Shown here: positions 29,354-37,732 of the stretch, piece after piece
Numbering within the stretch: the stretch's first letter is position 1
Layout of the letters: each line of letters begins with the position of its first letter
Source of the DNA: Candidatus Margulisiibacteriota bacterium
GTDB lineage: Bacteria; Margulisbacteria; Riflemargulisbacteria; GWF2-35-9
Assembly: GCA_028715625.1 (NCBI GenBank)
Contig: JAQURL010000020.1
Location: 1-39,591, forward strand
DNA length: 39,591 nucleotides
Reading direction: 5' to 3'
Notes under the pieces: generated by a model
Databases searched by the model: none
What the model saw: only the letters and a program-made list of their open reading frames with translations
Told to the model about the DNA's origin: nothing
Made by a program: the position numbers and the translations under genes

Positions 29354-29408
29354 ATAATAAAAATATTCCCGTTTAACGGAAAATTAAACATTTTTTGAGC
29401 TAAATGGT

Positions 29409-32321: not shown

Positions 32322-34250
32322 ATGTTCGAACTGAAAAATATTATTAAAGAATACAATAATGGAGAAATAAGTTTCAGGGCACTAAACAATGTTTCATTAA
32401 AGATTGATGCGGGTGAGTTTGTAGCGATTATGGGCCCTTCCGGGTCTGGCAAATCTACTCTGTTACATATCCTGGGTTTTCTGGATAAACCGGATAGCGG
32501 ACAGTACATTCTTGATGGACAGAATACTTCTCATTTTACCGATACCCAGTATGCCCAACTTAGAAAAGATTATATCGGCTTCGTTTTTCAACAGTTCCAT
32601 TTATTACCCAGAATCACGTCTATTCAGAATATTCATCTGCCCTTGATTTATTCCGGAAAAAAGCAGTTAAAACGCAGGGCTTATGAACTTTTGGAACAGG
32701 TAGGCTTGAAAGGCAAGGAAACCAACAACCCCAACGAGTTGTCCGGTGGAGAACGTCAAAGAGTTGCAATAGCGCGGTCGCTTGTTAATGATCCGCTTGT
32801 AATAATGGCTGACGAACCTACGGGCAACCTGGACAGTAAAAGCGAAAAAGATATCCTGAAAATTTTACAGGATTTAAATGATCAGGGTAAAACAATAATT
32901 GTTGTCACGCACGAAGAAGATATTGGTAAGCAAGCGAAACGTATTATACGCCTGAAGGACGGAGAGATCGTTTCTGACGAGGTTCAGGTTAAAACAAAAA
33001 TCGCGAAAAAGGGACATTTATCCGAATCGAAAGGCAAGAAACCTACAGGTAGCACCATACAATTTATGGACTATATTAAACAATCTTTTCAGATGATCTT
33101 TGCAAACAAGGTTCGTTCATTTCTTTCCATGCTCGGTATCGTGATCGGGGTTTGTACGGTTGTGGCAATGTTGGCGCTGGGTGCAGGAGCGAAAGTTTCC
33201 ATTTCCTCATCATTATCCAGAATGGGTACGAATTTGTTGATGGTTGTACCTAACAGAGGACAGGGAACAGTTCCGGTAAAATTTACCATAAAAGATGTTG
33301 ACGCTTTGAAAGGGCTTCCAATGATAAAGCGGGTTGCACCGCAGGTCTCAGGAGGAGTAACCCTCATTGCCGGAAATAAAAACTTGAGTTCTTATATACA
33401 GGGTTCGACTATAGAATCAGAGCAAATGCGTAATCGAACACCTGAATATGGGCGGTATTTTAATCAGGAGGAAATACAGAACCGTGAAAAAGTAGCGGTT
33501 ATAGGCAAAACCGTGGCCACTGAATTGTTCGGTGACAACGATCCGTTAAATCAGATTCTGAAGATCAATAAGATTAATTTCAGGATAATTGGAGTGCTTC
33601 CGGCGTTAGGCGGTGGAACAGGGCTCAGGGATCAGGATAATGTGGTTTATTTGCCATTATCGACTGCAATGTTTAGAGTGCTTGGCAAACAGTATTATGA
33701 TCAGCTGGATGTTGAGGTAAAGGATATAAAACAGGTTAGCGATGCGCAAACTGCTGTAACACAATTGATTACTAAAATGCATAACCTGACTCCGGAACAG
33801 AAGGATTCCATACGCATAATGAATATGGCAGAATTACAGGAAGCATTAATGAGCACGGTTAAAAGCCTGACGTTTTTATTGGGATTTATTGCATCCCTGT
33901 CACTTTTGGTTGGCGGTATCGGAATTATGAATATCATGCTGGTATCTGTTACTGAAAGAACACGAGAAATAGGCCTCAGAAAGGCGATCGGAGCCAGAAA
34001 GATAGATATTCTTATGCAGTTTATTACCGAAGCAGTGATTATGACTTTTACCGGGGGCATGTTAGGGATCCTTTTAGGGGTGGCAATTGCTACCATTCTT
34101 TCCAAAGTAGCAGCATGGACAATAGTTATTACGCCATCTGCCATAATTATTTCTACCTCATTTTCCATAACAATAGGGCTTATCTTTGGGATCTGGCCTG
34201 CTAAAAAGGCATCAAACCTCAATCCGATTGAAGCATTGAGGTACGAATAA
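32322..34250 (+). CDS. macB: MacB-like ABC exporter, fused ATPase and permease
   Basis: The 642-residue protein combines an N-terminal ABC ATPase with a MacB/FtsX-type permease. The ATPase has Walker [10 protein letters not shown] (38-46), signature LSGGERQR, Walker [15 protein letters not shown] and the H-loop THEED. After a charged linker (about 225-250) come TM1 ([19 protein letters not shown]), a large periplasmic domain (about 290-510) and three C-terminal helices with the conserved [12 protein letters not shown]. Length is close to E. coli MacB (648), which exports macrolides, heat-stable enterotoxin and lipids. It follows the adaptor by 3 bp. It could export a peptide, lipid or lipoprotein; the substrate is unknown. 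Confidence 0.92.
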
Positions 34251-34255
34251 AGTTA

Positions 34256-34290
34256 TCTGGAAGTAGTTGTTTCCAGACTATTTTACTTTT
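34256..34290 (+). terminator. Hairpin after macB, candidate terminator
   Basis: TCTGGAA (34256-34262) and TTCCAGA (34271-34277) form a 7-bp stem with an 8-nt loop, followed by the T-rich CTATTTTACTTTTT. It lies 6 bp after the macB stop and just past the end of the converging small gene, so it may serve both strands. Confidence 0.5.
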
Positions 34291-34525
34291 TGGATCTTTT
34301 TTTTAATTCTTCTTTGCGTTTGGCCAGAGCTGTCATCAGAAAAATATTCATAAACAAACCGGGTATCAGGTTCATCCTGGATGCGGTAATCACAGAATTT
34401 AACAAAGGATTTGTCTGGAGATTAAATTCTTTCGAAGTACCTTCGGTTTTTTTAGAAACTGCATTCGAGTCAGCCTTTTTCCCAGATTCATAAACATTAT
34501 TCAGAGAAACAGAATTAATATTCAA
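34283..34525 (-). CDS. Small hypothetical protein, 80 aa, with one hydrophobic segment
   Basis: I do not recognise this protein. The first 45 residues are polar and Ser/Lys/Asn-rich and probably disordered. A hydrophobic segment (about 50-67, MNLIPGLFMNIFLMTAL) and a strongly basic tail (AKRKEELKKRSKK) follow, which could be a membrane or membrane-binding helix with a cytoplasmic C-terminus. It is the last of three genes on the minus strand, 2 bp after the 247-residue gene, so co-expression is likely. Confidence 0.6.
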   Translation of the reverse strand: MNINSVSLNNVYESGKKADSNAVSKKTEGTSKEFNLQTNPLLNSVITASRMNLIPGLFMNIFLMTALAKRKEELKKRSKK

Positions 34526-34527
34526 AT

Positions 34528-35271
34528 TTATCCCCAGGTGTATTTTTTTATAAGCTTGGTTTGCTTGTTTTCACTTTTAACTAAGCGACCAGAATTGTTA
34601 TTCAGTCCCTGAGCTAAAAGACGGTCAAAACTATCAATCGTTTGTATTTCAAGGGGCTGACTACTTAAATTTTCATTAAAGAAATGTTGAATGGAAAAAT
34701 CATTAGATGTAAAAGCATTGTCGCCAAGCATGGAACAGAGTCTGGAATAATTTTTGATAAACAGACCATAAATTTTTTCGTAAGCGTCTTTATAAGCATA
34801 GATAAAAATTTCAGGAGATAATTCGTGTTCCGTAGTGACTTTGACAGTAAAAGAACTCATCATCAGATTGGTTTCAATACAAACAAGTTTGTCTTCATCT
34901 GCTGCTGTAATAACTTCTTTTTGCATAAGAGAACCAAGGGTATCAATTTTTTCACTATTACTTTCTACCAGATTTTCCATCCAGAGTTTGGACTGCAGCA
35001 TTGATTCCATTTGAGTGCTCAAAACTTTTTTAATGTGCGGTTCAATTTTTTGCAGCATAAGCACATAATCCCGCATGAGCCCGGCGATTTCCATACAAAG
35101 CTCAGTTGTCGGGTAATCCCTGTCTATTAATTGAATACTCAGGAGCTCAAAGGTCCGGTTCATGTTGAGAACAAGATGAGTGCCTTTTAAGGAAACAAGG
35201 CTGGAGCCCAATTTTTCGGAGACCCGCCGGGTCATAGCTTCGAGCTGGGCGATCTCGGTTTCTATAGACAT
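34528..35271 (-). CDS. Hypothetical helical protein, 247 aa
   Basis: I do not recognise a family. The sequence is mostly alpha-helical and soluble, without signal peptide or membrane segment. An N-terminal helix of the SIETEIAQLEAMTRRVSEKL type suggests a coiled coil, and a Met-rich middle (KVLSTQMESMLQSKLWMENL) another. The C-terminal 50 residues are polar. GGTGGA lies just before the ATG, and the start directly abuts the end of the 390-residue gene, implying coupled translation. The organisation resembles small cytoplasmic partner proteins of secretion or surface systems, but this is only an impression. Confidence 0.65.
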   Translation of the reverse strand: MSIETEIAQLEAMTRRVSEKLGSSLVSLKGTHLVLNMNRTFELLSIQLIDRDYPTTELCMEIAGLMRDYVLMLQKIEPHIKKVLSTQMESMLQSKLWMENLVESNSEKIDTLGSLMQKEVITAADEDKLVCIETNLMMSSFTVKVTTEHELSPEIFIYAYKDAYEKIYGLFIKNYSRLCSMLGDNAFTSNDFSIQHFFNENLSSQPLEIQTIDSFDRLLAQGLNNNSGRLVKSENKQTKLIKKYTWG

Positions 35272-36444
35272 TTATCCACCCTGAACCAAAGGAAAGCCGT
35301 ATTGATAAAGCCCTTTTTTCTTGTTAAAGAGTTCTTCTTCCAGTTTCTTCATAGTTTCATCAATAGCTTTCAAAGCATCTTTGACTTTAGCTCTTCCAGA
35401 CGTGATTTCGGTTAATGTTTTTTGAACATCCGGATCATTTTTTAATTTAGGAAGTGTACTAATAGCTGCCTCTGTATAAAGCTGCGCATCTCTTAGGCGC
35501 TGTTCTTTTGCCAATAAGTCGATTTGAGCGTTTTTAGCTTTCATATAAGGCAAGTTGCAGGAGCGGTAAAGGGCCAGTAGTTCATCACGTTGGTTTTTGT
35601 CTTTTACCTTTTCTATAATCAGTTTATCTGCATCCGTCTTAAAAATTAAATTTATGCTGCCATTAATATCATTTGAATTTTCAAAATATTCACCAATATT
35701 ACTGATAATTTCTGGGGCGACTTTCTTTATGTCGGCTATTTTCAACTCTGTTACTGACTTGTCTTCCAATGTGCCAGGAAATGCTTTGGTTGCCTCAGAA
35801 ATAATGGTTGAAGGATCAGTGGAATAATTACTCTTTGTATCTTGAGTTTTTAAGTATGAGCCGATAGATTTTCTGGCTGCATCTTTTTGTAATATATCTA
35901 TTTTTGATTTTACAAAACCTTCATTATTCCCGCTTATATCATTATTAACACGAGCCTTCATTTCCTCTTTTATTTTCTTATCTATTTGTTCAGTAGGGGT
36001 ATCGGTTTTTATATCTTTGAATAACTGGTCCTGAATATTTGTAATGGTAGACTGTGTGATTTTATCACTATCAGGAAGCGGAGCAGATTTTGCTTTGCTC
36101 TCGATAGCTCCCTTGATTTTCGCGCCCAATGAAGATTTTGCTATTGAAAGTTTAGAAAAACACACCAATAGTGTGTTTTTTATAAACTTTTCAGATATAG
36201 TTTCTGATTTCCTTGTAAGATTACCCTCTTTTGATAAGTATTTTAACTCTACCAGTGCTGAGAGAAATTTGTCTATATTTAGTGCTTTATCTTTACCTTT
36301 TATGGATTTGTCTTCATTAATAATTTTTTTAATTTCATTTACTATTTCTGAATTGCCAGGTAATGATAAATTGTCTTTTTTAACATCACCCCAGACGATA
36401 TCGCGGAATGAACTATTTATATTCCCTGCTAGCGTAGCTACCAT
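35272..36444 (-). CDS. Hypothetical Lys/Ser/Asp-rich protein, 390 aa
   Basis: I do not recognise this protein. It has no signal peptide and no membrane helix. Residues 1-110 are mixed, 110-230 are very polar and probably flexible, and the final 120 residues look like a long helical coiled coil (LLAKEQRLRDAQLYTEAA, then AIDETMKKLEEELFNKKK) ending in a short aromatic tail. A perfect AAGGAGG lies 7 nt before the ATG, the strongest ribosome site in the window, so high expression is expected. It heads the three-gene unit down to 34283 and diverges from the response regulator gene across 83 bp. Confidence 0.7.
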   Translation of the reverse strand: MVATLAGNINSSFRDIVWGDVKKDNLSLPGNSEIVNEIKKIINEDKSIKGKDKALNIDKFLSALVELKYLSKEGNLTRKSETISEKFIKNTLLVCFSKLSIAKSSLGAKIKGAIESKAKSAPLPDSDKITQSTITNIQDQLFKDIKTDTPTEQIDKKIKEEMKARVNNDISGNNEGFVKSKIDILQKDAARKSIGSYLKTQDTKSNYSTDPSTIISEATKAFPGTLEDKSVTELKIADIKKVAPEIISNIGEYFENSNDINGSINLIFKTDADKLIIEKVKDKNQRDELLALYRSCNLPYMKAKNAQIDLLAKEQRLRDAQLYTEAAISTLPKLKNDPDVQKTLTEITSGRAKVKDALKAIDETMKKLEEELFNKKKGLYQYGFPLVQGG

Positions 36445-36490
36445 ATTATATCCTCCTTATTACTCATCTAATATTATTCCCCAAAGGGAA

Positions 36491-36519
36491 TTGTTTTAAA
36501 CACAAATAAAAAATATAAT
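36491..36519 (+). promoter_or_regulatory. Response regulator promoter (TTGTTT-N17-TATAAT)
   Basis: TTGTTT (36491-36496) and a consensus TATAAT (36514-36519) are spaced by 17 bp. The ATG follows 8 nt later with no Shine-Dalgarno sequence, the clearest leaderless arrangement in the window. Confidence 0.6.
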
Positions 36520-36527
36520 GGTTATTA

Positions 36528-36905
36528 ATGAAAACCCAGAAAATATATATAATTGACGACTCCGAATATATTGCCCTGATGTTGAAAAAGGTTCTTTTTG
36601 ACCTAGATTATGTTACTCTGGGAATTTCCACCAAAGAAGATCATGCCCTGGATAACGTCAGGAGGTTAAAGGATGAAATAGATATCATCACCCTGGATAT
36701 TTATATGGGCAAAACTGACGGTATGTCATTAATACCCAAGCTGTTGGCTATTAATCCGAAGTTTAAAATAGTGATGGTCAGCTCCAACCGTGACGAAAAA
36801 ACAATTATTAAATGTATTCAAATGGGCGCAAAGCACTACATCCTAAAACCTTTTCATATGGAAGATATCAGAAAGATTATTCAAAAAATTTCTCAGGCAC
36901 CCTGA
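36528..36905 (+). CDS. CheY-like stand-alone response regulator
   Basis: This 125-residue receiver domain has no output domain. The acidic pocket is Asp10-Asp11 (IIDDSEY), the phospho-acceptor Asp57 (TLDIYMG), the switch Ser85 (MVSSN) and the conserved Lys107 (ILKPF). All key residues are present, so it should be phosphorylated by a histidine kinase, which is not encoded nearby. It probably acts through protein contacts, as CheY does. It diverges from the three unknown genes and converges on the FecR-domain gene with only 6 bp between them. A link to the neighbouring unknown operon is suggested by position only. Confidence 0.93.
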   Translation: MKTQKIYIIDDSEYIALMLKKVLFDLDYVTLGISTKEDHALDNVRRLKDEIDIITLDIYMGKTDGMSLIPKLLAINPKFKIVMVSSNRDEKTIIKCIQMGAKHYILKPFHMEDIRKIIQKISQAP

Positions 36906-36911
36906 GAATTA

Positions 36912-37688
36912 TTACAGTTTTAATTTTTTTAGAAATTTTTTAAGGATACTAAAAAGATCAGTTTGGCCAGTTTTTTCCTGGGTGGAGGTTTGGCTGGCAG
37001 TAATCTTTTCCAGTTGCTTTTTGTATTCGTTCTGAATTTTGGTTTTTTCGTCCTGTGTAATAATCAGAGAAGAATTCAGGATATTGTTCAAAGCACTCAG
37101 GCTCTGGTTGGACAATGGTTTGGTTTCCTGGATAGTTCCGGAGTTATTAATATATATTTCCGTACCTTTTTTTACCTGCACTGTTTGCTTGTCTGTTGCA
37201 ACCTCAACAGTGCCTTCATAAGTAGAAATATTACCCTCTGGCCCCTCCACCGAAAAGAAGGTGCCTTTTATAGAGATTGAAGCATGGGCTGTTTTGATAA
37301 TAAATTGTTCATTGGCAGGGGATTTGGTTATAGCCTTAATCCATATTTTGCCCAGCATTACCCGGACTGTACGGAAATAATCCTTTTGTGGATCAAGTTT
37401 TATGGCGTTTAGGATAATATCGGAATTGGGGTCTAGCCTCACGGTATGCCCAGAGGTAAATTGTATTTCGCAATAAGAGTTGGTAATAGTTTTAAGTTCG
37501 TCATAATTATAAAATTTTGATGTAGGCTTTACTTCCTGCCAATAAAAAGAGTCTTTGCCACGATAAAGTACGGTGCCGTCAAAAGTAATAATCTGGGCTA
37601 TTAATGGCGGTTCCAGGGAGTCAAAATTAACTTCGGCATAGAGCATGGAAAACGCAGCCAGAATTAAAATAAATATAAAATTTTTCAT
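36912..37688 (-). CDS. FecR-domain secreted protein
   Basis: The 258-residue protein has a signal peptide (about 1-18, ending SMLYA) and a FecR-type beta domain (about 30-190): a GTVLYRG strand, then YDELKTITNSYCEIQFTSG, VRLDPNSDI and the typical FIIKTAHASISIKGTFFSV followed by YEGTVEVA. Unlike FecR itself it has no membrane anchor with a sigma-factor partner. A polar coiled region and a lysine-rich tail end the chain. Such domains are common in periplasmic or surface scaffold proteins. It is the third gene of a minus-strand group with the barrel protein and the FlgD-like protein, 44 bp after the former. Confidence 0.85.
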   Translation of the reverse strand: MKNFIFILILAAFSMLYAEVNFDSLEPPLIAQIITFDGTVLYRGKDSFYWQEVKPTSKFYNYDELKTITNSYCEIQFTSGHTVRLDPNSDIILNAIKLDPQKDYFRTVRVMLGKIWIKAITKSPANEQFIIKTAHASISIKGTFFSVEGPEGNISTYEGTVEVATDKQTVQVKKGTEIYINNSGTIQETKPLSNQSLSALNNILNSSLIITQDEKTKIQNEYKKQLEKITASQTSTQEKTGQTDLFSILKKFLKKLKL

Positions 37689-37732
37689 AGTATCAGCCTT
37701 TTAATAATACTACTAAATAAACCTGAAAAACG

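What the first reader, a model, noticed from the sequence alone, without database searches (positions are those of the whole stretch)
34283..36905. Unrecognised three-gene operon divergent from a lone response regulator
The 390-, 247- and 80-residue proteins are packed with 0-2 bp gaps, match no family I know, and are led by the strongest ribosome site in the window. One is coiled-coil-rich, one helical, one small with a hydrophobic segment and basic tail. A CheY-like regulator with a strong promoter diverges from them. The set looks like an undescribed cytoplasmic or membrane-attached system, possibly tied to secretion, motility or surface assembly given the adjacent FecR/PorV/FlgD-like genes.
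Basis: inference. Interest (0 to 1): 0.65.

Follow-up and report, generated by a model that had tools for sequence, protein, structure and literature searches.

The report
Chaperone-and-cargo operon with shared promoter
In an uncultured bacterium related to cyanobacteria, three unnamed genes form one operon that probably makes a protein-handling helper and the proteins it handles, and that operon carries a promoter signal shared with about thirty other sites in the genome.

Summary
The three-gene operon is real: 390, 247 and 80 codons with gaps of 0 and 2 bp, all coding-like. It lies in a Candidatus Margulisbacteria genome (Marinamargulisbacteria side; relatives named).

The 247-aa protein is the conserved part. 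Divergent homologues (17-26% identity) occur in 6 of 7 genomes of its order, including a paralogue in the same genome, and convincingly nowhere else in the phylum. Each homologue with readable downstream sequence is followed within -8 to +15 bp by another gene, which varies between loci; the 390-aa protein has no homologue in the class.

Two independent lines suggest the 247-aa protein is two YbaB-like domains in tandem. That is the fold of the ESX-1 chaperones EspH and EspL.

Seven of nine family operons, the window's included, start with the same SigB-like promoter, GTTTRR-N13/14-GGGMAYA. It occurs 35 times in this genome against 1 in a reversed control.

Best reading: a cargo-plus-chaperone operon in a SigB-type regulon, perhaps feeding one of the genome's two flagellar-type export systems. 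The export route is inference. The CheY-like neighbour is not conserved and is probably unrelated.

The parts
36475..36501 (-). SigB-like promoter GTTTAA-N14-GGGAATA, 30 nt before the operon's first ATG
   Evidence: 35 hits genome-wide against 1 for the reversed pattern
36452..36458 (-). Shine-Dalgarno AAGGAGG, 7 nt before the ATG of the 390-aa gene
35272..36444 (-). 390-aa protein, first gene; charged and soluble, no signal peptide seen; putative cargo or partner; no homologue in the class
34528..35271 (-). 247-aa protein, conserved family of one order; putative tandem YbaB-like chaperone
34957..35271 (-). N-terminal YbaB-like half (residues 1-105; modelled helix, three strands, long helix)
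34726..34956 (-). C-terminal YbaB-like half (residues 106-182; modelled helix, three strands, long helix)
34283..34525 (-). 80-aa protein, TTG start, weakly hydrophobic stretch and basic tail; putative small cargo
34319..34375 (-). codons 51-69 of the 80-aa gene: hydrophobic stretch MNLIPGLFMNIFLMTALAK (Kyte-Doolittle 1.34)
34255..34278 (-). terminator-like hairpin after the operon (also read on the + strand)
36528..36905 (+). CheY-like response regulator, divergent neighbour; not conserved beside the family, probably not part of the unit

Best explanation
The operon encodes a dedicated chaperone (the 247-aa protein, probably two YbaB-like domains in tandem) together with the proteins it looks after (the 390-aa and 80-aa products), co-expressed from a SigB-like promoter as one unit of a regulon of about 30 promoters. 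The chaperone would bind its freshly made, translation-coupled partners and keep them soluble and stable until they are handed on. The likeliest destination is one of the two flagellar-type (type III) export systems in the genome. Shown: the operon, the conserved family with variable downstream genes, and the shared promoter. Supported but not proven: the YbaB-like fold. Inferred: chaperone activity, cargo identity and export route.
For: Family conserved across one order and absent elsewhere in the phylum, while the 390-aa partner has no homologue in the class and another cargo domain is confined to one genus. All eight family genes with readable downstream sequence are followed within -8 to +15 bp by a gene that varies between loci; three of these encode proteins with hydrophobic hairpins and no evident signal peptide. 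Two low-confidence models both give a helix-three strands-helix module twice; YbaB structures are Foldseek's most probable hits for both. Each half matches a YbaB profile better than 149 of 150 (N) and 150 of 150 (C) block-shuffled controls. [quoted passage not shown] EspL stabilises EspE, EspF and EspH without altering their transcription (PMC6319747). Promoter shared by 7 of 9 family operons. Non-Sec regulon proteins have polar N-termini compared with background (p = 3e-5). Two FlhA-type and two FliF-type genes in the class genomes.
Against: No PF02575 (YbaB) match for any family member. Models have pLDDT below 60 and YbaB Foldseek E-values of 0.18 or worse. The window's own 390-aa protein has an ordinary N-terminus, and the 80-aa protein is only mildly polar. 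Family pI varies from 5.3 to 9.3, unlike acidic type III chaperones. Two family operons (L033, L034) lack the promoter. Two genomes (G001, G007) have both export systems but no family member. No family gene was seen inside an export gene cluster. The first gene, 390 aa, precedes rather than follows the chaperone.
Confidence: 0.45

Rival explanations
1. The operon builds a cytoplasmic or membrane-attached scaffold: the helical proteins assemble with each other and the 247-aa protein is a structural subunit, with no export.
For: Many regulon products are long and without known domains; the 390-aa protein is soluble and charged with an ordinary N-terminus.
Against: A structural assembly should keep its subunits together, yet partners differ from locus to locus while the 247-aa family persists.
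Confidence: 0.25
2. The 247-aa protein is a DNA-binding regulator like canonical YbaB/EbfC, and the neighbouring genes are its targets or bystanders.
For: YbaB-like fold signal; YbaB/EbfC proteins are reported to bind DNA (cited in PMC6319747).
Against: The genome already has a canonical YbaB at C43:6071-6286. Family pI is not consistently basic. Tight gene coupling with variable partners fits protein binding better. EspL, also predicted as DNA-binding, did not alter transcription of the genes whose products it stabilises.
Confidence: 0.15
3. The operon and the divergent CheY-like response regulator form one signalling-output unit.
For: Divergent arrangement in the window; other response regulators occur elsewhere in the same regulon.
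Against: The response regulator is absent beside all eight other family loci, and its gene does not have the regulon promoter.
Confidence: 0.05

Closest known systems
[quoted passage not shown]
   Same: YbaB-like proteins (EspH, EspL) encoded with the secreted proteins they bind or stabilise
   Different: Type VII system and, as described in those papers, one YbaB-like region. Here there are two such halves in one chain, and the class genomes show no EccC/EssC-type ATPase, only one FtsK-type match over the cut-off each
YbaB/EbfC nucleoid-associated proteins (PF02575)
   Same: Predicted helix-three strands-helix module; YbaB structures rank best by probability among PDB folds
   Different: No PF02575 match, duplicated module, own paralogous operons; a canonical YbaB is present separately
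Type III secretion chaperone/cargo and chaperone/translocator gene pairs
   Same: Chaperone-like gene directly coupled to variable cargo; three cargos carry hydrophobic hairpins without evident signal peptides
   Different: No match to any type III chaperone family; protein larger (157-247 aa) and not consistently acidic; no family gene seen in an export gene cluster
SigB general-stress regulon of Bacillus
   Same: Promoter GTTTAA-N14-GGGAAT against the SigB consensus GTTTAA-N15(+/-2)-GGGTAT
   Different: Targets here include surface, chemotaxis-type and unknown proteins; the sigma factor is not identified

Membership tests
YbaB/EbfC family (PF02575) | Match to the family profile above its cut-off | tested here: not met
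   No PF02575 hit for the window protein (E<=10) or any of nine family members (E<=1)
YbaB/EbfC family (PF02575) | Helix-three strands-helix fold | tested here: inconclusive
   Two models, pLDDT 57.5 and 59.6, with that topology twice; YbaB hits E 0.18 or worse, probability up to 0.94; profile halves beat shuffles
YbaB/EbfC family (PF02575) | Single domain of about 100 aa | tested here: not met
   157-247 aa, two modelled modules
Type III secretion chaperones | Gene directly beside variable cargo | tested here: inconclusive
   Eight of eight loci with readable downstream sequence have a closely coupled variable gene, gaps -8 to +15 bp; that these are exported cargo is not shown
Type III secretion chaperones | Small and acidic | tested here: not met
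   157-247 aa, pI 5.3-9.3
Type III secretion chaperones | Binds its cargo and is needed for its export | not testable with these tools
   Needs pull-down and secretion assay
Type VII (ESX) Esp chaperones | Presence of an EccC/EssC-type ATPase in the genome | tested here: not met
   One FtsK/SpoIIIE match over the cut-off per genome, in open frames of about 550-780 aa, as for FtsK
SigB-type regulon | GTTTAA-N14-GGGWAT-type promoter well above chance | tested here: met
   35 vs 1 control in the own genome, 9-24 vs 0-3 in seven relatives; consensus from PMC9847131
SigB-type regulon | Recognised by a SigB/SigF-type sigma factor | not testable with these tools
   Candidate group-3 sigma factors exist (L054:17031-17861, L029:1402-2130, L030:10962-11555), none linked to the motif

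The most novel reading that the evidence does not exclude
Marinamargulisbacteria use a second, motor-less flagellar-type type III apparatus to export a large set of proteins, switched on as one SigB-type regulon, and service some cargos with a new chaperone class made of two fused YbaB-like domains. The window operon is one such chaperone-cargo unit.
Probability: 0.22. Interest if true: 0.82.

Novelty: new variant of a known kind. Interest (0 to 1): 0.55.

Why it matters
Very little is known of how Margulisbacteria meet other cells, although one member lives inside placozoan cells (PMC6784892). If the reading is right, the chaperone family and the shared promoter give a handle for listing candidate exported proteins of an uncultured lineage from sequence alone, and they extend YbaB-type chaperones from type VII to another secretion setting. 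The regulon by itself, found because this operon carries its promoter, is a concrete and testable result.

Tried and rejected
Similarity between the window's 80-aa protein and the 79-80-aa proteins after L033/L034: a shared KKTEG looked suggestive, but shuffles reach the score 744 and 277 times in 2000; dropped.

A SigD/FliA (sigma-28) promoter: spacing and -10 do not fit the sigma-28 consensus as I know it; the SigB form does.

Type VII export: no EccC/EssC-type ATPase. Injectisome with a short SctJ: the FliF-type genes are of flagellar length.

Phage or defence origin: no convincing PHROGs or PADLOC match; best PHROGs hit E 0.0027 over 30 residues of a family of unknown function. Rfam: nothing in 34200-37700.

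PDB sequence search with the family profile: nothing below E 0.3. The interferon-gamma hits of the 390-aa protein (E 0.02) are taken as chance.

VIA-align ranked YbaB only at Z 3-4, within noise, with other folds above it, so it neither supports nor excludes.

The first genome-contig scan with the window protein found nothing. A shared cargo domain was found only in one genus. Literature searches found no description of a type III secretion system or of this family in Margulisbacteria.

Full report
WHAT IS THERE. Three ORFs of 390, 247 and 80 codons lie head to tail on the - strand at 36444-34283 with gaps of 0 and 2 bp. Each has the codon usage of the other window genes in its own frame and in no other. 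The first has AAGGAGG at 7 nt; the last starts with TTG. A terminator-like hairpin follows at 34255-34278. The operon is flanked by a TolC/MacAB-type export operon on one side and by a CheY-like response regulator and FecR/PorV-like genes on the other (the TolC/MacAB naming is by eye).

WHERE IT COMES FROM. The window is contig 20 of a 2.6-Mb draft genome. Close relatives with the same gene family are uncultured Candidatus Marinamargulisbacteria. NCBI places this class in Candidatus Margulisiibacteriota, near the cyanobacteria.

A CONSERVED HELPER AND VARIABLE PARTNERS. A search with the 247-aa protein found divergent homologues. A profile of five found nine copies in 6 of the 7 genomes of the order, two of them in the window's own genome (a further E 0.03 hit in G001 vanished with the larger profile), and none of significance in the rest of the 74 genomes of the phylum (the single other hit, E 0.004, lies in a 1037-aa frame and is taken as chance). 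In contrast the 390-aa protein has no homologue in the class. Reading the loci, the gene after the family member varies: 363 aa with a hydrophobic hairpin plus a 305-aa protein (L007), 171 aa with a hairpin (L008), 698 aa with a hairpin (L009), 198 aa (L032) and 94 aa (L031), which share a domain found only in that genus, and 79-80 aa (L033, L034, alike in those two species of one genus). Gaps run from -8 to +15 bp in all eight cases that can be read; L010 is cut by its contig end. In the window the 80-aa gene occupies this place and the 390-aa gene precedes the family gene. That is the pattern of a chaperone beside its cargo, though it is not proof.

WHAT FOLD. No family library recognises the 247-aa family. 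A second model, of a relative and from the same four sequences, agrees (pLDDT 59.6). For both, YbaB structures (1pug, 3f42, 1ybx, 1j8b, 5yrx) are the most probable Foldseek hits (up to 0.94), but no E-value is significant. As a separate test I compared each half of the nine-member alignment with a YbaB profile made from sequences of this phylum. The C half scores 25.3 (P 0.0006; 0 of 150 block-shuffled controls as high) and the N half 19.0 (1 of 150), both on the same part of YbaB. I take 'two YbaB-like halves' as likely, not shown. VIA-align adds nothing. By membership test it is not a YbaB: it fails the PF02575 profile and the single-domain architecture, and the genome has a proper YbaB elsewhere.

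WHY A CHAPERONE. In mycobacteria, EspH and EspL are YbaB-like proteins encoded with ESX-1 substrates. [quoted passage not shown] EspL stabilises EspE, EspF and EspH without a change in their transcription (PMC6319747). The present genomes have no type VII ATPase, so only the principle carries over.

A SHARED PROMOTER. Lining up the upstream regions of the family operons showed the same element in seven of nine: GTTTRR, 13 or 14 bases, GGGMAYA, ending 20-32 nt before the first gene. Three of the seven are close relatives, so there are about five independent cases. In 670 kb of fetched DNA a somewhat looser form had only 13 distinct hits, seven of them these. Genome-wide the pattern occurs 35 times in the window's genome against 1 for the reversed control, and 9-24 against 0-3 in the seven other genomes of the class. 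Free positions are also biased (A at -2, T at -1 before GTTT). The B. subtilis SigB consensus is GTTTAA-N15(+/-2)-GGGTAT, with a spacer of 14 apparently best (PMC9847131). So the operon belongs to a large regulon of a SigB-like sigma factor. Its other members include PorV-type outer-membrane proteins, subtilases, Ig-repeat surface proteins, response regulators, a calpain-type protease without signal peptide, and many long proteins without known domains. Non-Sec products have N-termini richer in S, T, N, Q, G, P and poorer in hydrophobic residues than background genes (p about 3e-5 and 1e-5, n = 65 vs 168). The set includes related genes from several genomes, so these p-values are optimistic. 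This is compatible with type III export but is a weak, composition-only argument, and the window's 390-aa protein does not share the bias.

WHICH EXPORT ROUTE. Every genome of the class has two FlhA-type genes (two genomes show a third, fragmentary match) and two FliF-type genes, and in seven of eight genomes four FliM/FliN-type genes. The second set in the window's genome has rod, ring, FliF, FliH and FliI genes, but its FliG is 202 aa and matches only the start of the FliG N-terminal domain, while the first set's FliG is complete. Short FliG genes recur in the second set of two other genera, judged by length only. A motor-less, flagellum-derived exporter is therefore conceivable. No family gene was seen in that cluster, two genomes have both sets and no family member, and no experiment links them; the route is inference.

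WHAT THE NEIGHBOURS SAY. The response regulator resembles the CheY of the chemotaxis cluster (alignment) but is found beside none of the other eight family loci. It is probably an unrelated neighbour.

VERDICT. Real operon, real new family, real regulon. Chaperone-plus-cargo is the most likely function at about 0.45; type III export of the cargo is less certain.

Noticed in passing
G000 genome-wide; e.g. L177-L203: A SigB-like promoter pattern, 35 hits against 1 control in this genome, marks a regulon of surface, chemotaxis-type and unknown proteins conserved across the class.
   Followed up: partly
L054:10994-19999 and L030:8075-11555: A second flagellar-type export gene set whose FliG matches only the FliG N-terminal domain; its FlhA lies on another contig beside a FliA-like sigma gene.
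   Followed up: partly
L221:3088-4137: Calpain-family cysteine protease (PF00648, E 6e-32) with a polar N-terminal extension and no evident signal peptide, behind the regulon promoter in a related genome.
   Followed up: no
L032:13356-15422: Serine dehydratase alpha-chain domain (PF03313) behind a hydrophobic N-terminal region, next to a putative cargo gene.
   Followed up: no
L007:15245-15880 and L034:1560-1916: Small proteins ending in DIEAILNALD / DLESMLNSL, like the CheY-binding motif of FliM, kept beside a pyruvate:ferredoxin oxidoreductase gene and an RpoD-like sigma gene in two families of the order (by eye).
   Followed up: no
L201:1134-2171 and L029:7875-8576: C-terminal ends look alike by eye (PGxLxxMQTxLxxMK) and recall secreted filament subunits; Pfam has no match.
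   Followed up: no
window 36476-36491: A perfect inverted repeat ATTCCCCAAAGGGAAT overlaps spacer and -10 of the operon promoter; found at no other family locus.
   Followed up: partly
window 29364-29389: A second hit of the promoter pattern on the - strand with no gene of that strand downstream for kilobases.
   Followed up: no
L008:14934-17830 and L009:7574-12992: In two families of the order the chaperone-hairpin gene pair lies close to the same rlmN-HAD gene pair, suggesting an old shared position (by eye).
   Followed up: no
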